DNA of 64,000 nucleotides from Eunapius fragilis (lineage: Eukaryota; Porifera; Demospongiae; Spongillida; Spongillidae), in NCBI GenBank assembly GCA_963681505.1, contig OY811974.1, positions 9,208,047-9,272,046 on the forward strand, written 5' to 3'. How positions within the stretch are numbered: position 1 is the stretch's first letter; every line of letters begins with the position of its first letter. Position numbers and translations under genes: made by a program. The notes below the pieces were generated by a model. It saw only the letters and a list, made by a program, of their open reading frames with translations. It was not told where the DNA came from and did not search any database. Of this stretch, positions 416 to 63,277 are shown in pieces.

Positions 416-3400
416 ATGTTCGACCACGATGCTATTCGGGAGTTTTTGGTGCATGGTAGTTATCCAACTGGGTATTCCAAAGACCAAAAGCGATCATTCA
501 GAAGAAAAGCGAAACTTAACTTCCGAGTCAAGTCTGGTGTCCTTTACTATTCTGCCTCTTCGGCTTCGGCGGAAGAACGGCGATGGAGGAGAGTAATAAC
601 AACAAAAGAAGAGCGTCATCGCGTCATGACAAGCTGTCATGCATCTGCTGAAGGTAAGCATCTGTTCGAGCGTGCAGTCACTAGAATAGGGGTGAGGGGT
701 GGGTGGCTATTATAGAAATTGCATGCATGTATTTGTAGCCCAAAGTACGGTTGATAATACTATCAAACTGCTGATAATGTTTTTTGCTTGCTATTTAAAT
801 TCTAGGAGGACATTTTGGGAGGGACAAAACTCTGGAGAAGGTTACCTCAAGATTTTTCTGGGAAGATATGTTTGATGATATCCGTCAGTTTGTGAAATCT
901 TGTGATACCTGCCAGCGAGCTAATGACACCAAATTTTCTAAGATTGATGCTGCTCTCCACCCTATTCCTGTGGAATCTAAAGTGTGGAACCAAGTAAATT
1001 GCATTCTTTTCGTGTGTGTGTCATGCACCCCCCATTTTATTTTTATTATTTGAGAATACTTTAATTTTATTAGTACTTAATCCAGTAGTTCAAATAATCA
1101 TTTAAAGTTTCAGAATTGCAATGATGAATTATATTCATAGGTGGGTATTGACATGATTGGACCACTTCCCAAAACTTCATCAGGCAACCGATATGTCATA
1201 ACTCTTATGGATTACTTTTCAAAATGGCCAGAGGCAGAGCCTTCAAAAGACAAGACATCACGCAGCGTTGCCTCATTCCTGTACAGGATGATATGCAGGT
1301 ATTACATTTATGTATGTGCAAAATGTTAGTCCTGAGTTTTTAGAAAATGTATGAGTTTGATTTTGTAGAATATGGAGGCAACATAACAATGTATTGTATT
1401 GGTGCTATAAGTACATGTAAACAATCCGATGTATTTCAGTCTAAAACATATGCTATAAATTACAAAGTGAATGCAGAATTAATATTAATTTTAAAAACTA
1501 AAACAGTGCAATTAGAAATCAGCAAAATTGTTACTTCATTGTGCAATTTAGAAAACTACAGCATTTTCTAATTTGGAAATTTGCATACGTATGTGGATAT
1601 ATACAAATACGTGCATAATTATGTGTGGCAATATTCTTACTAAACAAGGGTCATGCACTAAACTGTATTTCATGTTGTCATATAGCAAATAAAATTTAAT
1701 GATGAATAGTGTGCTTACCTTCATGCTGTTTGCCAGTATGGGTAGAAATTATATTTGTATTGAGGTTCCTGTACTATTCTTTAAATTTGTTCTATCTATC
1801 TTTACATATAGACATGGAGCTCCGAAATCAATCCTTACTGATCAAGGGAGGGAGTTTGTGAATAGTACAAGTGAGCACCTTTTTTACCTGACAAACATCA
1901 AACACAAGATGACATCAGCTTACCATCCACAATGTAATGGCCTAATTGAGCGATACAATCAGACACTACAGCGATCATTGTTGAAACTTGTTAGCGAGAA
2001 ACAGGATGATTGGGACATGTTTCTTGATGGTGTTTTATTTGCGTATCGCACATCGGTGCACAAATCAACTGGTTTTACACCATTTGAACTAATGTACTGC
2101 AGGTATGAAAATTTGATGGTTGGTCTATGCACTAAATCATTCATATGTTCTGTCATTTAGGAAAGCTGTTCTGCCTATTGAAAATGACATACATTCAGAA
2201 AGTGTGAATACCAATGTTGGTGAAAGTCATGCAGAGGAAGGGGCTGAGGGGACAGAAGAAATGATTACAAGGATGGCACAATTACAGAAGGGATTGTTCC
2301 AATCAGCCAAGCTAAACATTGGCAAGGCACAGGACCGCTACAAACGAGACTATGATATGAAACACAGCAATGGCAAAGTAAGTTGGCACATTAAAAATTG
2401 CTGTCCTCATTCACATTGTTCTTATAAAACAGCCAATTCAAGTTGGGCAAATGGTTCTGTTACGCAACTCCCAACGTGATGGTAGAAAGGGTGGCAAGCT
2501 TCAGAAGAGATGGCTTGGTCCTTACAAGGTAGTAGATTCCATTGGAAAGGGAAGGTACATACTCTTCAATCCCATGACCCGAGCAAAACTTAGAAAAACA
2601 GTTAATATTAATAGGCTCAAATTGTACCACTCATCAATACTTCATATATCAAAAAAGAGAAAGCGTGTGAAATGTTCTTCTGCAGTTCTTCAGGAATCAG
2701 GGAATTATGAAGATGCTAGTCCAGAAAAGGAGCAAGATGGTGCTTCAAAGAAGGGAGCTCATGAGTTATCTTTATCAAAGAAGACTAGGGTGATGGAATG
2801 CACCACTGAGGAATCTGGAGATTGTGCAGATCCAAGTCTGGACAATGGGAAAGATAGTGCTGCAATGAAGGGAGCTCATAAGCCTCCTTTATCAAAGAAG
2901 ACTAGGGTGATGGAACGCACCACTGAGGAATTGGGAGATTGGGCAGATCCAAGTCTGAGCAATGAGCACCATGGTGCTGCAAAGAAGGAAGCTCATGAGT
3001 TATCTTTATCAAAGAAGACTAGGGTGATGGAATGCACCACTGAGGAATTGGGAGATTGGGCAGATCCAAGTCTGAACAATGAGCACCATGGTGCTGCAAA
3101 GAAGGAAGCTCATGAGTTATCTTTATCAAAGAAGACTAGGGTGATGGAATGCACCACTGAGGAATCTGGAGATTGTGCAGATCCAAGTCTGGACAATGGG
3201 AAAGATAGTGCTGCAATGAAGGGAGCTCATAAGCCTCCTTTATCAAAGAAGACTAGGGTGATGGAACGCACCACTGAGGAATTGGGAGATTGGGCAGATC
3301 CAAGTCTGAACAATGAGCACCATGGTGCTGCAAAGAAGGAAGCTCATGAGTTATCTTTATCAAAGAAGACTATAGGGTGATGGAATGCACCACTGAGGAA

Positions 3401-4968
3401 TCTGGAGATTGTGCAGATCCAAGTCTGGACAATGGGAAAGATAGTGCTGCAATGAAGGGAGCTCATAAGCCTTCTTTATCAAAGAAGACTAGGGTGATGG
3501 AATGCACCACTGAGGAATCGGGAGATTGGGCAGATCCAAGTCTGGACAATGGGAAAGATTGTGCTGCAAAGAAGGGAGCTCATAAGCTTTCTCTGTCAAA
3601 AAAGGTCATAAATGTGCAAAGTCAAAGCTCTAATACTGTTGGTAATAAATCAGTGCTTAAGCAAATTAAGAATTTGAAAGGCACTATAGAGGTTTCAGGT
3701 TATAGCCAGGATAATTCCACACACCTGAACACAGCTGATTTGGGGTTTTTCACTGAGGGTAATAAGCAAGATAGCTACTTAATGCATTTTAGTAATGACA
3801 ATGTATTTTCAAATACCTTGTGCCCAGAAGATGGTTTTACAACCAGTACACCAAAACAATGTGGTGGATACTTTGTTCCAATGAATGCAATGGATACTTC
3901 TCCTATTTCCTGTGTCGAAATTTCAGGTCTGACACATCACACAGTTTTGGCTTATAAATCAGTACCTCTAGAGCCAGAAGCATGCAGTACAGAGAAGAAA
4001 ACTACCAGATGCTTGAAAACCCGTGCTGCAATGAGGGATAGTCTCAAGCGAAAAAATGCTCAGCAGTCTTCAGCTGCAGGCAATAATCTCATCACCCATC
4101 CAGGTAATGTTATGTTATTCATGTGTTATGTGATTCTGTTTATTGTCAAGCATGAGTATAATAGCATGAATGTCACAAATTGATTTGGTCCCCTATTTTT
4201 GCAGAAGTAATAGATGATTCAAAGGACCATGTGGATCCAATATCTCACTGGATACCATACCTGAACTTATTAATGTATGATTATGAAGCACTGGTTGGTG
4301 GCAAATGGATTACAGATAGCATAATTAATGCTGGACAGAAGCTTCTCCAAAGTGTTTATCCATTAGTTCGTGGTCTGCAAGTTACCACACTTGGTGAAGT
4401 GTTAGCCTATCGTGTGGAACGACAGGAATTTGTACAAATCCTACATGTATCCACCAATCATTGGTTAACGTGTTCTACCATTGGATGTGAGCCTGGAGTA
4501 GTAAACATTTTTGACAGCATGAGTGGAAAGGACCTACCCACCAGAGCAAAGGAACAAATAACATCACTCGTCTGTACTCCACTAAAGCAAGTCATTTTGA
4601 AGTTTATGCGTGTTCAAAGGCAAAAAGGTTGTAATGACTGTGGTGTGTTTGCATTGGCGTTTGCCACTACATTGTGTAGTGGGGAGTGTCCAACATCTAT
4701 GACATACAATCAAAAAAGTATGAGAAAGCACTTGCTAGACTGCTTTGTGAATGGTAAGATGGAAACCTTCCCTACCACAAAAGGAAAGAAAATTACACGA
4801 CCCATTTCTACTGTAAAAGTTAATGTCATTTGCAATTGCAGGCAACCTGAAGATGACTGGATGGTTCAGTGTGATGGATGTGAAGAATGGTTCCATAAGG
4901 AGTGCGAGAACATACCAAGCACAGTGTGGTCGAAAAAATCCAAGTGGCTTTGTAGTTTGTGTGCATAA
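416..4968 (+). CDS. Ginger1 transposase: integrase + coding repeats + Ulp1 protease + PHD
   Basis: Exons 416-653, 806-993, 1141-1298, 1812-2102, 2161-2377, 2433-4103 and 4205-4968, all with GT-AG junctions and matching phases. Exon 1 has the YPYY-like region (SYPTGYSKDQ...GVLYY). Exon 2 has the zinc-binding domain (GGHFGRDK, C-x2-C). Exons 3-4 hold the DDE core: VGIDMIGPLP, ILTDQGREF and NGLIERYNQ, with 35 residues between the second D and the E. Exon 6 has RWLGPYKVVD, the GPY motif. Then follow 39-residue repeats, a C48/Ulp1 domain with H (NHW), D (IFDS), Q and C (QKGCNDCG), and a C-terminal PHD finger (CNC, CDGC, HKEC, CSLC). The protein should cut and join transposon ends in the nucleus; the protease and PHD roles are unknown. 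One frame break lies in the repeat array, so this copy may not make full-length protein. Total about 1,175 codons. Confidence 0.85.
2740..3600 (+). repeat. 117-bp tandem coding repeat in the Ginger1-A gene
   Basis: About seven units of 117 bp (39 codons), each containing a form of MECTTEE, GDCADPSLDN and LSKKTRV. Two unit types alternate (DCADPSLDNGKD and DWADPSLNNEHH), which suggests the array grew by duplicating a two-unit block. Confidence 0.9.
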
Positions 4969-24713: not shown

Positions 24714-24790
24714 AATAGACAACTTCAGGAATGTTGATTGAATAGATATAATTGCCTTTGACGTCACATCCGGAGTACACGCGTCGAAGC
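24714..24790 (+). repeat. Left inverted repeat of the ISL2EU element
   Basis: AATAGACAACTTCAGGAATG through GACGTCACATCCGGAGTACA; imperfect inverse of 33768-33844. Confidence 0.85.
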
Positions 24791-26034
24791 GTTCGTGTTC
24801 TAAAGGCTAGAGCTAAACAAGCACAACTTACAGTTACTGTATCCCATAAGCACGTAAGCGAGTAGAATGCTTTGAAAGATGTTGTTCAGTTGTTTTGTGT
24901 AATCTCAGACTTAGCCACGTGGACAACTTACATGAATCTATCTTCGTCAGGAGATACCTGCAGCACAGCCGAGCTTTCTGAAAACGACATCCCTGGCGCT
25001 TCATTGACTGAACCATTAGAGGCCCACAATGTGGCAGCACTAAAATGGTGGCTTCTTTGCCGTGGGATAAAAGTTAAGTCATCTAGTAGAAAAAAGGAGA
25101 TAATAGAGAGGATCAGGGAAGCTATGAGAAGTGGAGCAAAGGTCATTGACGTGGACGGCTCATATGTTGCTCGCAAACGGCAACTACAGTGCGAGATTAT
25201 AAACGAACCAACAGGCTTGGTCACCGATATTGGCTTACCTATTACTGGTTGGGAGGTTATTTCAGCTGAGAATTACAAGTCTTACTCATGCAAGATGCCT
25301 ACAGTTACCCTTGGTCAGTAATACATGACGCAGATATACATAATTATTGTAGTTTATCTTCCTTGTTAGGAATTCTCTATGAATACCTTGCAAAAGGTGT
25401 TGGTCGATCACAAGACAAGGGTGCTTTCAGAGCAATCTCAAGGGGCTACAACCACTGGGCATCAGGAAGGATAGAGAGGGTTGAAATAAACACACGACAT
25501 CCAAACTTGTGTCATGTGCAATGCATAATGAAGCCATCAATGAAAGTAGGTAAGTACCATGTATATGTTTTGCTTGACCATGAAGGAACCTTGGCATCTA
25601 TAAAAAAGGCTACCTGTGAATGTCCTGCTGGGTAGGTTGGAGTATACACATGATATGTGCCTGTGCATGTACATCTTTGTTTCCCAAATACAGAAAATCA
25701 GCTTCCTGCACACATATTTCAGCATTGCTACATGCTCTAGTGACAATGACATCTATGAATGTGTCTGGACATCAAGATGAAAAAGACACTGAACTACCAG
25801 TCACATCTTATTTATGTAAATGGAATGTTCCTCGGGTACGAAAAGATTGCACTTTAAGGATATCAGAACAAAAATTTCAGAAACATGATTATAGACAGTT
25901 GAAGAAGGCTAAGTATAGCAGTGTGCAAGATTTTGACCCAAGGCCACTTCAATACAGGGGTACAGCGCAAAAACAGAGCTTGAAGCATTATTAAGTAAAG
26001 TGAAAGGAAAAGGGCTGGGTATTTCATTGCTACT

Positions 26035-26303
26035 TGTGATAGAGTCCGTTATCGCGCCAACGACGCTCGCCGTATTGCGCCAAGGATACTCCAACTTATT
26101 CTCTTCTCAATTGCACAGCGTGTACATATTTATACGCGACTAAGGTTGAGAACCTTACACCTCTCTATGGAGAGTGCGTAACAATTACATAAACTATGCA
26201 CACCAACAATAATGTTCTGAATCACTTGAATAGGGGTTGCTCCCGCCCGACATTCAGCGTGTGAATCGTCTCATTCACCTCCATGGAAGACTGGGCTTCC
26301 ACA
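26035..26303 (-). repeat. 3' LTR of the Gmr1-like element
   Basis: 269 bp, nearly identical to 30913-31181. The end of the coding frame reads about 80 bases into it. Confidence 0.95.
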
Positions 26304-29300
26304 CTCCTCTCCTCCTCTCCTACAACAAACTTGTTTGTTGCGCATCGTGAGAGACAGTCTGCATTCCCATTAGCCTTGCCAGGTCTATGCTCCACTGTGT
26401 ACAGATAAGGCTGTAGTGAGAGACTCCATCTGCATAACCGGGGGTTGCTCTCCTTAAGCTTATCTAACCATTCGAGTGAGCGATGATCCGTTTGGATGGT
26501 AAATCTTCGTCCCAACAAGTACACTCGAAATGCCGCGATCGCGAGTTTAATCGCAAGACATTCCTTCTCAACAGTCGAGTATCGCTCCTCTCTTGGTAGA
26601 AATTTCCTGCTGTAGTACGCAACAGGGTGTTCCTCCCCATCAGCTCCATGTTGGCTCAGGACCGCTCCCGCTCCTCTATCTGAAGCATCGGTTTGGAGAA
26701 CAAACGGTTGTGTGAAATCCGGGCTCTTCAGAACAGGGTCACAACATAGACATCTTTTAAGCGTTTCAAAAGCCTTGGTGCACTCCTCGTTCCACTCTAC
26801 TACGTTTGGCGACGTCCTTCTAGTTAAGTCTGTCAACGGTAACGCTATCGTAGCATAGTCTGGGATAAATCGACGGTAATATCCCGTAAGACCCAAAAAT
26901 CCTCTGACCTCCCGCTTAGTATCAGGACGAGGGAAGGATTCGACAGCACCGATCTTATTCGTCTCCGGTCGGACTGTACCGTTCCCCACAACATGTCCAA
27001 GGTAAACACATTCCTTCATCCCGAATTGACACTTAGCCAACTTCACCGTCAAATTTGCATCCTTGATGCGTTGCAAAACCGTTCGCAAATGTTCGATATG
27101 ACCTCTCCAGGTACTGCTGTAGATCACCACATCATCTAGGTACGCTGCTGCAAAAGCTTCGCAGCCTCTCACCAAAGTATCCGTGAGTCGTTGGAAGGAA
27201 GCCGGTGCACCATTCAATCCAAACGGCATTACCCGAAATTGAAATAGACCCCTTGGTGTGACGAATGCGGTTTTAGGTCGATCTTTCACGGCCACAGGCA
27301 TTTGCCAATAACCCTTCGTAAGGTCGAGAGTTGAGATATACCTCGCTTTTCCAAGTTGGTCAATGATCTCATCTATTCTGGGCATGGGATATGCTTCTAC
27401 CTGTGTAACGGCATTCAGTCGGCGATAGTCAACGCATACCCGCATCGTTCCATCTTTCTTCTTGACCAAGACAATTGGCGATGACCACTCGCTAGTAGAC
27501 TGCTCGATGATTCCGTGCTGTTCCATCTCTTCTAACTCCTGGAGTACTGTCTCGCGATATGCATGGGGTAATTGGTATGGACGCATCCTTACAGGACGAG
27601 CATCTACTGTCCTTATGTGATGCTGCATCAAGTTGGTTCTACCAGGTCGATTGCTGAAGATCTCCTGAAATTCATCCATCACTCCCTTCATCTGAAAGGC
27701 TTGGTCAGTACTTAATTGTTCACCGAAACTCGCCTCGCCCACCGTATCATCCTTCCATGCTGGAATTTCGTCTACTCCTTCCTGTAAAACTTCCTCCAAA
27801 AAACATGTCTCCTCCGACCGCACCTGAAATGCCTTCAGCATGTTCACATGGAAGACTCTCGTTCGTTTCCTTTTGTCGTGCATATCAACCGAATAGGTCA
27901 CCTTGCCCTTCCGTTCTAGCACTTGATAAGGTCCTTGCCACTGTGCTGTGAGCTTGTCTGTCGTCGTAGGTAACAATACTAAAACTGGATCTCCGGATTT
28001 GAATTCCCTCAAACGTGCCCTCTTGTCGTACCACTGTTTCTGTGCTCCCTGCCGTATCACTAGGTTCTCCTCTACTATGTCGGCCATCTCCTTCAACCGT
28101 CGCTGCGTCTCCAATACATGGCTAACAACCGTTTCCTCGCTCTTGGGGCTCGCTTCCCACGTCTCACGTAGGATGTCTAAGGGGCCTCTCACATCTCGAC
28201 CATACAATAGCTCGAATGGGGAAAACCCAGTAGAAGATTGTGGCACCTCGCGGTACGCAAATAGCAAATATGGGATTTGCTTGTCCCAGTATTTCCCTCC
28301 GTCATGTGCCGTCTTCCTCAGCATTCCCTTCAATGTTTGATTGAACCGCTCGACGAGACCATCCGTCTGAGGGTGGTAGGGACTAGTTCGGATCGCCTTA
28401 ACCCCCAGCAGTCGGTACAATTCCGCCAGCAGCTGTGACATGAAATTACTGCCTTGATCCGTGAGGATTTCCTTAGGCACTCCCACTCTAGCGAATAACT
28501 TGATTAGTTCTTCCGCGATATGTTCCGCGTCGATGGTTCTCAGTGGTATGGCTTCAGGGTAGCGCGTAGCATAATCGCACACCACCAGAATATAACGATT
28601 TCCCGCTTGGCTGCGAGGCAGGGGACCCACTATGTCCATGGCCACTCTGCTGAATGGTTCCGATATGACCGGTAGTGGTACCAACGGAGCTGGCTTTACC
28701 CCTCGCTTAGATGACTTCTGACAAACCCGGCAACTCTTGCAATACATTTCCGTATCCTTGAATAAGGACGGCCAATAAAACCTGCGTAGAATACGCTGCC
28801 TTGTCTTATCACGGCCTTGGTGACCAGCCATAGGAATATCGTGGGCCAACTCTAACACTGTTTTCCTGCACTGCTTTGGCAAGACCAGTTGCTCCCACTC
28901 ATACTCCTCGCTGCGTCCTGGAGGTCTCCACCTCCGATAAAGCAGACCATCTCTCTTGAAGAACTCCTCATTAGGGCCGTTAGACTGTTCAGCCTTCTCC
29001 CACACTTCCCGGAGCGATGGATCACACTGTTGTGAACGACCAAGATCCCTTGATGATATGTTGAGGCCCTTTTCTCCTGGTACCTCGTTTCGAGCATCTG
29101 GGGTCAACACGATCTGGTTCAGGTCCGTACTGTCCGGCCGCTTAGCTGGACCAATCGCCGCTTCGACGTTGGTAGCCTCGTGTCGTTGCCCTTCTGCTAT
29201 TTTCCCGGCCAAACGTAACTGTTCCTGGCCATCCTTTGGAATAGCGTTTGGCCGTACTCCTGACCGTTCCTGCCGTGCCCTTCGAACCATTTCTTCTTCT

Positions 29301-30829
29301 AGCTGCTGTCTGGCTCGTGCTCTTGTTAGCACCACCATTACGTCTTCTTGTCGAGGCCACGCCGGCTTAGCCTTGTCTCGCTTTGTAGTCCGATCCCTTA
29401 TTAGGTTGCCCAACTCGGGAACGTCTGTCCCCAGTATCACGTCAACTGGTAAACGTTCGGCCACTGCCGCCTCGACCTTAACTGGGACTCCCCGTATGTG
29501 TAGGGTCAAGTCCGCTAGGTTGTACAGCTTAGTGTCTCCGTGAGCACAACGAATGGACACCATCTTCCCGTCTATGATCTTCTCGGTGGGAACCCACTGT
29601 TGCCTCACCATTGTTCGGGTACAACCGGTGTCCAACAGTATTCGGGACACTTTCCGCCCCTCCACTAAACCTGCTACCCATGGTCCCGACTGTGTAATAT
29701 CGGCGTCTTCGAAACACATCAACACTTTTTCAGGGCATTCTCGAGATACGTGCCCCTGCTTCTTGCAGTTGAAGCACCTTAGTCTTGCCTTTTCTGCACC
29801 TCCTTTGCTCGTGCTTGCCTTCTTGCGACACTCCTTTTCCATGTGCCCAAGCAAGCCACAATAATCGCACCTCGGCGTTAAATTGGTTTGGCTCATGGGT
29901 TTCTGGGTACCCACCTGATGACCATACCGCGCCTTCTGTAAACCAGGCTGCCTCGCCTGCTCGTATTCATCCGCCAGTTCGCCTGCTGCGATACTCGTTT
30001 TTGGTTTCTTCTCCATCACCCAAAGTTTCTGCTCGGGGTTACTCAGCGTTTCCAAGAACTGCTCCTTTCCAATAAACTGCTGCACGTCATCGACTGTCTT
30101 ACACGTCTTCGTCCATTTCTGGAGTAGATCCATCAGCCGAACTGCAACCTCGCGATTAGTTTCGCCGTCACTCCGTGATGAAGAGCGAAACCTCTTCCGA
30201 TAGGCTTCCTCGTTTATATCATACCTCGCCAGTACCGCAGCCTTGATAGCGTCGTAATCGGCAGCGCTTTCTGACGGGAGAGCCGCAAATGCCAACTGGG
30301 CCCTACCTGTTAACTGCGGTGTCAAGAATTGCGACCATCGGCCTTTATCAACCTTCTGAGCCGTCATTATTCTTTCAAATGTGACCAGATATGCCTCAAT
30401 GTCATCCTTCTCGGAAAGGGGTGCCAGCTTCACACTTAACCCCACTGGGTTCTTAGATCCTCCTGGCGTCTCAGTCGGAGTTTTCACTAGTCTGACTAGT
30501 GCCTCCATGCACTCCTGCATCTCCCTACGTTCCACCACGAATTGTTGCTCCCGTATCTTCCGCTCTTCCTCCAGCCGCGCTCGCTCGCCGGCCTCCTCCT
30601 TACGTCGCGCTTGCTCTATTTCTTCACGTCGCTGTCGCTCTTCCTGCACCCGTCGCGCCTGCTCTTCCGCCTCCTCCTTACGTCGCGCTTGCTCTACCGC
30701 CTCCTCCTTACGTCGCGCTCGCTCGTCCTCTTCGTACCGGCGGCGATCTTCCATAAGCGCCTTGAGAATTTCTTCCATACCCTCTGCTTTCGTCGGACTT
30801 TTATATTCTTTACCGGAACGCGTGGTCAT
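26222..30829 (-). CDS. Gag-Pol polyprotein of the Gmr1-like element (PR-INT-RT-RH order)
   Basis: A single 1,535-residue frame. Rough order: charged coiled coil 25-110; Gag core 130-300; two CCHC zinc knuckles about 321-365; aspartic protease 397-470; integrase zinc domain 650-705; integrase core 725-880; a GPY motif near 966; reverse transcriptase 1080-1280; RNase H 1365-1495. The sequences are Gypsy-like, but the integrase lies before the RT, as in copia. Among Gypsy elements this order is known from the Gmr1-like group, first described in deuterostomes. The frame ends inside the 3' LTR. Confidence 0.95.
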   Translation of the reverse strand: MTTRSGKEYKSPTKAEGMEEILKALMEDRRRYEEDERARRKEEAVEQARRKEEAEEQARRVQEERQRREEIEQARRKEEAGERARLEEERKIREQQFVVERREMQECMEALVRLVKTPTETPGGSKNPVGLSVKLAPLSEKDDIEAYLVTFERIMTAQKVDKGRWSQFLTPQLTGRAQLAFAALPSESAADYDAIKAAVLARYDINEEAYRKRFRSSSRSDGETNREVAVRLMDLLQKWTKTCKTVDDVQQFIGKEQFLETLSNPEQKLWVMEKKPKTSIAAGELADEYEQARQPGLQKARYGHQVGTQKPMSQTNLTPRCDYCGLLGHMEKECRKKASTSKGGAEKARLRCFNCKKQGHVSRECPEKVLMCFEDADITQSGPWVAGLVEGRKVSRILLDTGCTRTMVRQQWVPTEKIIDGKMVSIRCAHGDTKLYNLADLTLHIRGVPVKVEAAVAERLPVDVILGTDVPELGNLIRDRTTKRDKAKPAWPRQEDVMVVLTRARARQQLEEEMVRRARQERSGVRPNAIPKDGQEQLRLAGKIAEGQRHEATNVEAAIGPAKRPDSTDLNQIVLTPDARNEVPGEKGLNISSRDLGRSQQCDPSLREVWEKAEQSNGPNEEFFKRDGLLYRRWRPPGRSEEYEWEQLVLPKQCRKTVLELAHDIPMAGHQGRDKTRQRILRRFYWPSLFKDTEMYCKSCRVCQKSSKRGVKPAPLVPLPVISEPFSRVAMDIVGPLPRSQAGNRYILVVCDYATRYPEAIPLRTIDAEHIAEELIKLFARVGVPKEILTDQGSNFMSQLLAELYRLLGVKAIRTSPYHPQTDGLVERFNQTLKGMLRKTAHDGGKYWDKQIPYLLFAYREVPQSSTGFSPFELLYGRDVRGPLDILRETWEASPKSEETVVSHVLETQRRLKEMADIVEENLVIRQGAQKQWYDKRARLREFKSGDPVLVLLPTTTDKLTAQWQGPYQVLERKGKVTYSVDMHDKRKRTRVFHVNMLKAFQVRSEETCFLEEVLQEGVDEIPAWKDDTVGEASFGEQLSTDQAFQMKGVMDEFQEIFSNRPGRTNLMQHHIRTVDARPVRMRPYQLPHAYRETVLQELEEMEQHGIIEQSTSEWSSPIVLVKKKDGTMRVCVDYRRLNAVTQVEAYPMPRIDEIIDQLGKARYISTLDLTKGYWQMPVAVKDRPKTAFVTPRGLFQFRVMPFGLNGAPASFQRLTDTLVRGCEAFAAAYLDDVVIYSSTWRGHIEHLRTVLQRIKDANLTVKLAKCQFGMKECVYLGHVVGNGTVRPETNKIGAVESFPRPDTKREVRGFLGLTGYYRRFIPDYATIALPLTDLTRRTSPNVVEWNEECTKAFETLKRCLCCDPVLKSPDFTQPFVLQTDASDRGAGAVLSQHGADGEEHPVAYYSRKFLPREERYSTVEKECLAIKLAIAAFRVYLLGRRFTIQTDHRSLEWLDKLKESNPRLCRWSLSLQPYLYTVEHRPGKANGNADCLSRCATNKFVVGEEERSVEAQSSMEVNETIHTLNVGREQPLFK

Positions 30830-30912
30830 CCACCGTTCAATGATAATATTGGGATCCGCGTGGTATTGTCAACCAACTGTTCGACTGATCGTATCCCACC
30901 GCTGCCACCAAA

Positions 30913-31181
30913 TGTGATAGAGTCCGTTATCGCGCCAACGACGCTCGCCGTATTGCGCCAAGGATACTTCAACTTATTCTCTTCTCAATTGCACAGCGTG
31001 TACATATTTATACGCGACTAAGGTTGAGAACCTTACACCTCTCTATGGAGAGTGCGTAACAATTACATAAACTATGCACACCAACAATAATGTTCTGAAT
31101 CACTTGAATAGGGGTTGCTCCCGCCCGACATTCAGCGTGTGAATCGTCTCATTCACCTCCATGGAAGACTGGGCTTCCACA
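30913..31181 (-). repeat. 5' LTR of the Gmr1-like element
   Basis: 269 bp, nearly identical to 26035-26303, with TACT on its outer side. Confidence 0.95.
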
Positions 31182-32099
31182 TACTTGACCCAACATATTG
31201 TGACAGAAATACAGTAAAAAGTACTCCAGTTGCACCAGGCTTACCTACACAGCTACAGTTAGAAGAATCCATTCATCAGTTTAAATTGAGCCTCTCTTTA
31301 TCAGAAGAAAAGATAAATGAAGTTGAATTTAATACAAGGGAACAACGCAACTCACCATTGTGGTTTTCTGCTCGAAGATATAGACTGACAGCATCAACGT
31401 TTGGAGAAATTTTCCATTTTCAGCCAGACACAACTCCTGATCGCATTGTTCTTAGACTATTGAAGGGCAAACAGTTTACATGTCCTTCTGTACAATGGGG
31501 AATAGAAAATGAACCAGTGGCAATTCAAGCTTATATAAAGCATCAGCAGACAAATGGTCACCATGGATTGACTGTTGACCCTGTTGGATTTCTTATCAGC
31601 AAAGACTATCCATTCCTTGGTGCATCTGCAGATGGCACTGTCCATGATCCTACAAGTGACCAACAGTTAGGATTTCTTGAAGTTAAGTGCCCCTATACAC
31701 ATCGTTGCCTTTCACCGTATGAAGCCAGTCAAGATAAGTCTTTTTATTGTTGCCCTTCAGACAACAAAACTATAACCCTGAAGTGCAATAGTAACTACTA
31801 CTGCCAAGTGCAAGGACAAATGGCAGTTGGAAAGAGGCCTTGGTGCGACTTTGTTGTGTATACAACAAAGGGCATCAATGTTGAATGAATCAGGTTTAAC
31901 CCAGACTACTGGGCTGAAGTACTAATGAAATTAACAGATTTTTATGACAAGTGCTTTGCTCCAGAACTGGTTAGCCCGCTACATGTTCTAGGACAAAAAG
32001 TACGAGATCTGCGATCAAATGATCTGTAAGCATACAAACACATCATTCTTTACAAAAATTATGAACACCGTATTGAAAATATAAAATGCTATTGTTATC

Positions 32100-33742
32100 T
32101 CAATGACAACTATCATCTGAGTCTGAGCATGCATGATCATCATCTGTATCATCCAATGTTTGAATATATGTATCCACATCTGTGTCACTTAAGTCAGTCA
32201 CATCATCTGTATCATCCAATGTTTGAATATATGTATCCACATCTGTGTCACTTAAGTCAGTCATAGCAGGTACAAGGGCAGGTTGAAAGTTTGTTAACCA
32301 TGCACAAACACTTACAATGTGGTTGGTAAGCCGTATCATTGACAGAGGAATCTCTTCCTTTAAAATAGAATAGCTTTTTATTCTTCGAATAGCTCGTTCT
32401 ACATGAATTCGAAGTGATGCAATGTTTCTCCCTTTTAACACATCATCTGGAGACAACTGGTTACCACCATCAAGAAAAGGTGGTATATTAAGGTCAACTC
32501 CAATTTCTTTTAGCTGGTCTTTAATTGTAAAACCTTTGTCCGCCATGATTGAAATCCCATTTTTTCCTTCTAGTTTCTTTAGAAATCCTGACACTCTAGT
32601 TAGTTCAACATCAGATATTGAACCGACATATAAAGGTGAGATATAACTGATGGCACCATTGGGAGTACAGGCTATCAAAAATTTAGCTGTATTGTGATGC
32701 TTGTACTGACTCCATGTAGAGGCCTGTAAATGCAAGTCAGAGGGAGTTTGAATAAAGACTTCACTTCCATCAACTATAGCAAACGTTGAAGGGTATTTCT
32801 TAAAGAATGAATCAGGCAATGTTGCAGCAACCTGACTAGGTGAAGGCATCCATTCAATCTCATTCAAGTGTTGATAAAGAAAACAAATCCATGTATTTCG
32901 ATACCTCTGACTCTGATATACCAAATCGCACTGCTAGATCCAAATTTCTTAGATTCAGCTTAAGCTTCATTAAGGTCAGAAAAAACTCATCAATTGCATC
33001 CAATGACCTTTTCCTAGCTTTCTGAGGCTTTTTTCTTTTTTCCTCCCCCCAATATGTAAGGTTTGAAACTGAGGGACCCAAAAACTCAAAAAAAGCCAAC
33101 AAAATCTCATATGACTGAAACCCTGTGTACAGTTTAACAAGCTTGTCATTTTCTGCTATATCTGTAATTTTAAAGTAAACTTTCTCTTTGGTAAAAAAAG
33201 TCCAGTTTCTTAGTTAACTCGTTATTCCCTTTCTCTAAAGTTTTGATTCGATCAAGCATTGCCGCAGTGTTTGTCTCACAAGCTGAATCAATATGTTCTT
33301 CAGGAATCTCGTACACTTGATAGTCTGTAATGAGTTGCTCACCCACATTTGCTATCATAGACTTTGGGAGCGTGTCAGTACTAATGGAAACTATCTGTTC
33401 ATCAGGAACACTTAATTCATCATGACCATTCGGTTGCATTTGCGATATAGTAACCGAAGCCCTTCTTAATTCCCGCCCTACAGCTCTCCTGTTTCTCTCG
33501 GTGCCTTTCTTCATTGGAGATGCCAAATGTCTACCAAGGTTAAGCTGTGGATCGTTTCTTGCATCAGCATCTAAGAAGTGTCGACTGCAAACACGATGGT
33601 ACTCTTTTATCACAACACTGGTAAGGTCAAGCGCTTCAATCCATCGTAGCCTCTTCGCACGCTCTTGAGGAAAGCGATGAAAAGAAGCACTTCCATCCTT
33701 GGCCTTCGTATTTTGACATACGATGCAAACGTTTCCTGGCAT
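32100..33742 (-). pseudogene. THAP-DDE transposase of the ISL2EU element
   Basis: Starts at 33742 with a THAP zinc finger (NVCIVCQN, W at RLRWIEAL, CSRHF), the usual site-specific DNA-binding module. A coiled stretch follows (MLDRIKTLEKGNNELTKKL), then a helix-turn-helix region (LRNLDLAVRFGISESEVSKY) and a DDE_Tnp_4 domain: FAIVDGSEVFI, SIMADKGFTIKD and LRIHVERAIRRIK give the three acidic residues. Two copies of TDLSDTDVDTYIQTLDD close the protein. Two one-base frame changes, one in a T run near 33190 and one near 32905, break this copy. It is convergent with the YqaJ gene, which ends 70 bp away. Confidence 0.8.
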
Positions 33743-33767
33743 TACTGTGACTACAAAGCGCTATACT

Positions 33768-33844
33768 CAGTTTCTTCGACTGTACTCCGGACGTGACGTC
33801 ACACATCATTAAAACTAATGAAACATTCCAGAAAGTTGTCTATT
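33768..33844 (-). repeat. Right inverted repeat of the ISL2EU element
   Basis: TGTACTCCGGACGTGACGTC through GAAAGTTGTCTATT; imperfect inverse of 24714-24790. Confidence 0.85.
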
Positions 33845-62701: not shown

Positions 62702-63277
62702 ATGGCAGCAGATGACCTTACGGGGTTTTTTAATCAAGAGGGGTCAGAGGAGGAAGAGGATGACATACATCCTCCGACTCCTCTCCCCTTCACCCCGCCA
62801 CCTCCAGAAGCCCCGCCACTACCAGCAGCGCTACCCCCGCCGGCACCACCAGCGCTGCCCCCGCCGGCACCACCAGCGCTACCCCCGCCGGCACCACCAG
62901 CGCTGCCCCCGCCGGCACCACCAGCGCTACCCCCGCCGGCACCACCAGCGCTGCCCCCGCCGGCACCACCAGCGCTACCCCCGCCGGCACCACCAGCGCT
63001 GCCCCCACCGGCACCACCAGCGCTGCCCCCACCGGCACCACCAGCGCTGCCCCCGCCGGCACCACCAGCGCTACCCCCGCCGGCACCACCAGCGCTTCCC
63101 CCGCCGGCACCACCAGCGCTGCAACCGCCGCCTGTGCTCCCTCCCTGGCCACTGCCACCCTGGCAGTGGCCAGCATGGCGGGGAGGCCGGGGAGGAGGAC
63201 GTCCCCGCAGGAGACGAGGGCGCGGGCGAGGACAACAAATAATTTATAGTACATATAATTATAATTATTATTATTAA
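62702..63277 (+). CDS. Pro/Ala-repeat protein with Arg/Gly-rich tail
   Basis: 191 residues. Acidic start (MAADDLTGFFNQEGSEEEED), then about 13 copies of PALPPPAP encoded by near-identical 24-bp DNA, then a Trp/Pro stretch (LPPWPLPPWQWPAW) and a basic RGG-like tail (RGGRGGGRPRRRRGRGRGQ) ending in a Tyr/Asn run. The tail could bind RNA. A promoter, a 5' intron and an acceptor directly before the ATG support expression. No known family; no enzyme domain. Confidence 0.55.
   Translation: MAADDLTGFFNQEGSEEEEDDIHPPTPLPFTPPPPEAPPLPAALPPPAPPALPPPAPPALPPPAPPALPPPAPPALPPPAPPALPPPAPPALPPPAPPALPPPAPPALPPPAPPALPPPAPPALPPPAPPALPPPAPPALQPPPVLPPWPLPPWQWPAWRGGRGGGRPRRRRGRGRGQQIIYSTYNYNYYY

What the first reader, a model, noticed from the sequence alone, without database searches (positions are those of the whole stretch)
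26035..31181. Young Gmr1-like retrotransposon (integrase before RT) in a probable non-bilaterian host
Near-identical LTRs, a TACT duplication, a purine tract and one long frame indicate a very recent insertion. The Gypsy-type pol has the copia-like order PR-INT-RT-RH. That arrangement was first described for deuterostome Gmr1-like elements, so its presence in a sponge-like genome would widen its range or indicate horizontal spread.
Basis: partly seen in the sequence, partly recalled or inferred. Interest (0 to 1): 0.8.

Follow-up and report, generated by a model that had tools for sequence, protein, structure and literature searches.

The report
Young Gmr1-like retrotransposon in freshwater sponge
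A freshly inserted jumping gene with an unusual gene order and a capsid domain best known from vertebrate proteins sits in a sponge genome, so this lineage reaches far beyond the animals in which it was first described.

Summary
At 26035-31181, minus strand, lies an intact LTR retrotransposon: 269-nt LTRs with 1 mismatch, TACT duplication, polypurine tract, an 18-nt tRNA-Leu primer site, and one 1535-codon frame coding gag, PR, INT, RT, RNase H in that order. Two near-identical copies of its target elsewhere in the genome are empty and carry TACT once. Contig sizes identify the host as the freshwater demosponge Eunapius fragilis. At least 17 young LTR-flanked copies exist, inside a larger set of families: INT lies upstream of RT in 28 of 30 RT-anchored loci (two lack an INT match) and in 23 of 23 gag-anchored loci with an RT partner. 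Ten of ten more distant Gypsy loci tested have the ordinary order. RT-RH and INT trees both separate the two orders. The capsid carries a SCAN domain, found upstream of 86 of 109 close RT rows and 0 of 29 distant ones; SCAN is documented for Gmr1 elements of frogs. So it works as, and most likely is, a Gmr1-like element. No named Gmr1 sequence could be put in the tree. Gmr1-like elements are in print from crustaceans and an annelid; I found no sponge report. Ancient inheritance versus horizontal spread stays open.

The parts
30913..31181 (-). 5' LTR, 269 nt, TG...CA
26035..26303 (-). 3' LTR, 269 nt, 1 mismatch to the 5' LTR
31182..31185 (.). target-site duplication TACT (plus strand)
26031..26034 (.). 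target-site duplication TACT (plus strand)
30893..30910 (-). primer-binding site, 18 nt complementary to the 3' end of host tRNA-Leu(AAG) plus CCA, 2 nt after the 5' LTR
   Evidence: tRNA genes
26304..26320 (-). polypurine tract abutting the 3' LTR
26222..30829 (-). single gag-pol frame, 1535 codons, stop inside the 3' LTR
29948..30208 (-). gag capsid C-terminal part, SCAN domain PF02023, E 4.7e-11
29729..29779 (-). CCHC zinc knuckle matched by PF00098; a second CCHC motif lies just upstream
   Evidence: reading
29420..29671 (-). aspartic protease, DTG motif
   Evidence: reading
28706..28879 (-). integrase H2C2 zinc-binding domain
28370..28660 (-). integrase core (rve); D, D, E with 35 residues between the last two, invariant in the 5 sequences of A3
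27827..27967 (-). integrase C-terminal p58_C/SH3 (GPY/F-like) module
26990..27466 (-). reverse transcriptase, YLDD present
26405..26794 (-). RNase H
24714..33844 (.). host DNA transposon (inverted ends; YqaJ, DDE_Tnp_4 and THAP frames) into whose YqaJ frame the element inserted; about 4 kb without the insert

Best explanation
A recently inserted, structurally intact Gmr1-like Ty3/Gypsy retrotransposon of the freshwater sponge Eunapius fragilis. Shown from sequence: intact LTRs, tRNA-Leu primer site, purine tract, one gag-pol frame with integrase before reverse transcriptase, SCAN-type capsid, two paralogous empty sites, many young sister copies. Inferred: the RNA is made from the 5' LTR; the single gag-pol product is cut by its own protease; SCAN-type capsid units assemble into particles; RT primes from tRNA-Leu(AAG) and then from the purine tract; the Gypsy-type integrase, released from its place between PR and RT, joins the DNA with a 5-bp (here 4-bp) stagger. 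The integrase shift most likely happened once, before the families in this sponge diverged.
For: Structure and order. Family: 17 LTR pairs, 12 substitutions in 4561 sites, 11 of 17 pairs with none. Empty sites on C5 and C2. INT upstream of RT in 28 of 30 and 23 of 23 relatives, downstream in 10 of 10 more distant loci. Trees: the order groups split at 100/100 in RT-RH and 99/99 in INT. SCAN upstream of 86 of 109 close RT rows, 0 of 29 distant ones. Capsid profile against PDB: 5 hits, best 2.5e-14, all named as proteins that I know as SCAN proteins. RT and INT nearest solved relative is Ty3. SCAN found only in Gmr elements among frog LTR elements (PMC4131045); SCAN said to derive from Gmr1-like gag (PMC3424704). 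Host.
Against: No named Gmr1 element was available for the tree, so clade membership rests on order, SCAN gag and the single frame. Two of 30 RT loci (L019, L030) show no INT match; L027 also has a second, weaker INT fragment downstream. 65 of 150 SCAN matches have no close RT row downstream (85 do). 23 of 109 close RT rows have no SCAN upstream. The Ty3 branch is very long, so the rooting is unsure, above all for INT. The ten ordinary-order loci include one identical and one nearly identical pair, so about eight lineages, and all were found by likeness to this RT; other Gypsy clades were not sampled. Activity was not tested.
Confidence: 0.88

Rival explanations
1. The same kind of element, but it reached freshwater sponges by horizontal transfer from an aquatic bilaterian (fish, frog or crustacean) and then radiated.
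For: All 17 LTR pairs compared have at most 4 substitutions; held papers report Gmr1-like elements from aquatic animals such as fish, frogs, crustaceans and a marine annelid.
Against: The sponge holds many families: RT identity to the window element falls stepwise from 75 to about 55 percent and capsid identity to 43 percent, which asks for long residence or many transfers. No relative from another animal was available to measure.
Confidence: 0.3
2. Convergence: integrase moved upstream independently in a sponge Gypsy lineage that is not Gmr1.
For: No named Gmr1 sequence was compared; order alone could arise twice.
Against: The order comes together with a SCAN-type capsid and a single gag-pol frame, both recorded for vertebrate Gmr elements.
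Confidence: 0.1
3. Contamination or misassembly of foreign DNA in the sponge assembly.
For: Sponge tissue carries other organisms.
Against: The 17 LTR pairs lie on 11 different contigs of chromosome scale, and the window copy sits in a DNA transposon with other copies on C2 and C5.
Confidence: 0.02

Closest known systems
Gmr1 clade of Ty3/Gypsy (Gmr1 of Atlantic cod; Gmr families of fish and frogs)
   Same: PR-INT-RT-RH order (PMC2582038); SCAN in gag (PMC4131045); one gag-pol frame, 1506-1634 aa in pufferfish against 1535 here, no env (PMC11117352)
   Different: Host is a sponge; shorter element (5.1 kb against 6.1-6.5 kb) and LTRs (269 against 337-518 nt) than the pufferfish families; phylogenetic position not tested
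Gmr1-like elements of protostomes (GyRex4, Gychoro2, GyMaja1, GyLiva4 of crustaceans; LGF3 of Lamellibrachia)
   Same: Placed with Gmr1 in print
   Different: Bilaterian hosts; the passages read say nothing of SCAN
Ordinary-order Gypsy elements of the same sponge (L069-L074, L090-L093)
   Same: Same RT, RNase H and integrase families
   Different: RT-RH-INT order in 10 of 10 loci; RT 45-51 percent identical; a SCAN match lies upstream of 0 of the 29 RT rows of this class
Ty1/Copia
   Same: Only the domain order
   Different: RT and INT are of Gypsy type; nearest solved relative is Ty3

Membership tests
Gmr1-like Ty3/Gypsy | integrase upstream of reverse transcriptase | tested here: met
Gmr1-like Ty3/Gypsy | Gypsy-type RT and integrase despite the order | tested here: met
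   Pfam RT_RNaseH, Integrase_H2C2, p58_C/SH3_Tf2-1; Ty3 best in PDB
Gmr1-like Ty3/Gypsy | SCAN-type capsid, in over half of frog Gmr elements and no other frog LTR element (PMC4131045, passages) | tested here: met
Gmr1-like Ty3/Gypsy | single gag-pol frame without env, as in pufferfish Gmr families | tested here: met
   the frame fills 4608 of 5147 bases
Gmr1-like Ty3/Gypsy | RT and INT group with named Gmr1 elements | not testable with these tools
   no collection of eukaryotic elements found here; viral contigs gave no relative, genome contigs one 61-residue bacterial match
Gmr1-like Ty3/Gypsy | RT and INT separate from ordinary-order Gypsy of the same host | tested here: met
   100/100 and 99/99, 12 of 30 INT-first loci and 10 of 10 RT-first loci in hand used
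Ty1/Copia | Copia-type RT and integrase | tested here: not met
LTR retrotransposon, recent insertion | LTR pair, TSD, PBS, PPT, empty site | tested here: met

The most novel reading that the evidence does not exclude
The integrase-first order and the SCAN-type capsid arose together before sponges and other animals parted. The lineage has lived in sponges ever since, so the retroelement stock from which vertebrates later took their SCAN zinc-finger genes is as old as animals.
Probability: 0.45. Interest if true: 0.7.

Novelty: new member of a known kind. Interest (0 to 1): 0.5.

Why it matters
It puts an integrase-first, SCAN-capsid Gypsy lineage, diverse and recently active, into a non-bilaterian animal. 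That makes the age of the order change, and of the capsid that gave vertebrates their SCAN domain, a question that can be tested across sponge genomes. The host also holds many relatives in both orders side by side, for comparing how the two pol arrangements work.

Tried and rejected
Copia membership was rejected because RT and INT are Gypsy-type. Contamination was rejected on the spread of copies over contigs and the nested position. Searching IMG/VR with RT and INT alignments gave no relatives; the one genome contigs match, 61 residues in Glutamicibacter at 41 percent, I take for a bacterial integrase-like gene (not followed up). Structure prediction of the capsid was switched off. A first tRNA pattern matched nothing; with N at two places and one mismatch allowed it found the tRNA-Leu genes. 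A COX1 search for host identity did not complete and became needless.

Papers. Passages only were seen of PMC8556966, PMC8220671, PMC2774666, PMC3424704, PMC3587641, PMC4131045, PMC10027918, PMC11117352, PMC2582038, PMC6238403 and PMC12616128 (for the last also its abstract). Not held: PMC3209298 and Goodwin and Poulter 2002; what I say of them beyond citing papers is recalled. That no sponge report was found rests on searches of open-licence PMC papers: (16 of 16 listed; passages read of 9; 9 of 9; 19 of 19; 6 of 6; 0; 4 of 4), and on parts of longer lists (25 of 1,263; 10 of 618; 40 of 2,706). Subscription papers and repeat libraries were not searched.

Full report
What is there. The region 26035-31181 is an LTR retrotransposon on the minus strand. 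Its LTRs (269 nt) differ at one site. After the 5' LTR come 2 nt and an 18-nt primer site, TGGTGGCAGCGGTGGGAT, which pairs with the 3' end of host tRNA-Leu(AAG) plus CCA. The tRNA-end pattern gave 19 places, 8 of them without mismatch, and ARAGORN called tRNA-Leu in 3 of the 3 loci given to it. Some one-mismatch places, such as C9:6083948 and C13:3827209, lie just upstream of SCAN gags of other families and are probably their primer sites (inference). A 17-nt purine tract abuts the 3' LTR. One frame of 1535 codons holds, by Pfam on four pieces, SCAN and CCHC, protease, integrase (H2C2, core, p58_C/SH3), then RT and RNase H. The order PR-INT-RT-RH is therefore real.

Insertion and age. The 735 bases left and the 719 bases right of the element also occur, 99-100 percent identical, on C5 and C2, where they abut with TACT once; the left stretch is 2 bases shorter there, and a fourth match of the right stretch, on C12, is partial and weak. 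So the insertion took place in one of three otherwise alike copies and made a 4-bp duplication. The target is a DNA transposon of about 4 kb with inverted ends, coding YqaJ, DDE_Tnp_4 and THAP domains. In both empty sites one frame runs open across the site into the YqaJ frame, so the insertion splits that frame. In 17 LTR pairs of the same family 11 have no substitution (one of these has a 9-base gap), 12 substitutions occur in 4561 sites, and 16 have a 5-bp duplication; the window copy alone has 4. Two of the 17 are internally short and one spans 14.4 kb. No sponge substitution rate was applied, so no absolute age is given.

Host. The own genome has 218,937,333 bases in 24 contigs. The genome note of Eunapius fragilis gives 218.91 Mb in 23 chromosomes plus a 28.5-kb mitochondrial genome (passages of PMC12616128). 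I saw 16 contig lengths; 15 agree with its table to two decimals, e.g. C1 24.99, C2 17.64, C4 14.35, C9 9.79, C23 4.27 Mb, and C5 is 11.68 against 11.69. This is identification by assembly size, not by a marker gene; the COX1 search did not complete.

Relatives in the genome. RT of the element gave 138 scored match rows out of 3213 first-look candidates, so a lower bound: 109 rows at roughly 55-100 percent identity (two of them from one element) and 29 at 45-51 percent (split made). Domain order was tested where DNA was in hand. Of 30 loci with RT at 65 percent or more, 28 have the integrase core upstream; L019 and L030 have no integrase match, and L027 has a further weak integrase fragment downstream. 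Of 30 SCAN loci, 23 had an RT partner and all 23 have integrase between SCAN and RT. Of 10 loci taken from the 29 rows at 45-51 percent, 10 have integrase downstream and 0 upstream; one pair of these is identical and one nearly so. Twelve of the 30 INT-first loci (the others are near copies or incomplete) and all 10 RT-first loci went into trees with Ty3: the order groups are two sides of one branch with support 100/100 for RT-RH and 99/99 for INT. Thus RT and INT have moved together; there is no sign of a recent integrase swap. Ty3 sits on a very long branch, so the rooting is weak, above all for INT.

Capsid. SCAN (PF02023) matches the window gag at 4.7e-11 and 150 scored places of the genome (193 candidates), up to 82 bits; the tool's 14 control genomes gave none, but which genomes these are was not shown, so I lean little on that. 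A same-strand SCAN match lies within 6.5 kb upstream of 86 of 109 close RT rows and of 0 of 29 distant rows. Of the 150 SCAN matches 85 have a close RT row downstream and 65 have none; the latter may be decayed or lie beside RT copies not scored. A profile of 8 sponge capsids hits 5 PDB sequences at E up to 0.01: zinc finger proteins 24, 42 and 174, PEG3 and ZSCAN10, ZNF24 best at 2.5e-14; that these chains are mammalian SCAN domains is recalled, save for the name of the last. No retroviral capsid is among them. The window gag alone gave two weak hits, a viral zinc knuckle and ZNF24. In print, SCAN is said to derive from the gag of a Gmr1-like element (PMC3424704) and was found in over half of frog Gmr elements only (PMC4131045).

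What it is. Order, SCAN capsid and single gag-pol frame without env (as in pufferfish Gmr families) fit the Gmr1 clade. The one defining test left undone is a tree with named Gmr1 elements. Gmr1-like elements were first described from deuterostomes and later reported in crustaceans and an annelid, so the range was already wider than deuterostomes; a sponge report was not found in the searches named under Tried and rejected. The stepwise spread of families in this one sponge speaks for long residence, but transfer is not excluded.

How it works, shown and inferred. Shown: the cis signals, the intact frame with protease DTG, integrase D-D-35-E and RT YLDD, and the insertion product; that these residues are catalytic is recalled knowledge of the families. 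Inferred from the biology of Ty3/Gypsy elements: transcription from the LTR, capsid assembly through the SCAN-type domain, protease release of integrase and RT, tRNA-Leu priming, and integration with a 4-5 bp stagger. How the gag to pol ratio is set with one frame is unknown.

Noticed in passing
window 24714-33844: DNA transposon with inverted ends, coding YqaJ, DDE_Tnp_4 and THAP proteins, with near-identical copies on C2 and C5 and part on C9; resembles, from memory, the ISL2EU/IS4EU kind.
   Followed up: partly
G000 C7:4149722-4164160: A family copy whose LTR pair spans 14.4 kb with identical LTRs and a 5-bp duplication, so it probably carries a nested insertion.
   Followed up: no
G000 C1:456502-459776 and C4:10634662-10638297: Short family copies (3.3 and 3.6 kb) with 5-bp duplications, probably internally deleted.
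   Followed up: no
window 26031-31185 against 16 sister pairs: This copy has a 4-bp target duplication while the other 16 of 17 pairs show 5 bp; the empty sites bear out the 4.
   Followed up: yes
window 2451-4968: Frames with an SH3_Tf2-1-like stretch below cut-off, tandem peptide repeats, a Ulp1-like protease stretch at its cut-off and a PHD finger, perhaps another mobile element.
   Followed up: partly
window 62702-63277: Frame with 11 counted PPAPPALP units followed by an RG-rich tail.
   Followed up: no
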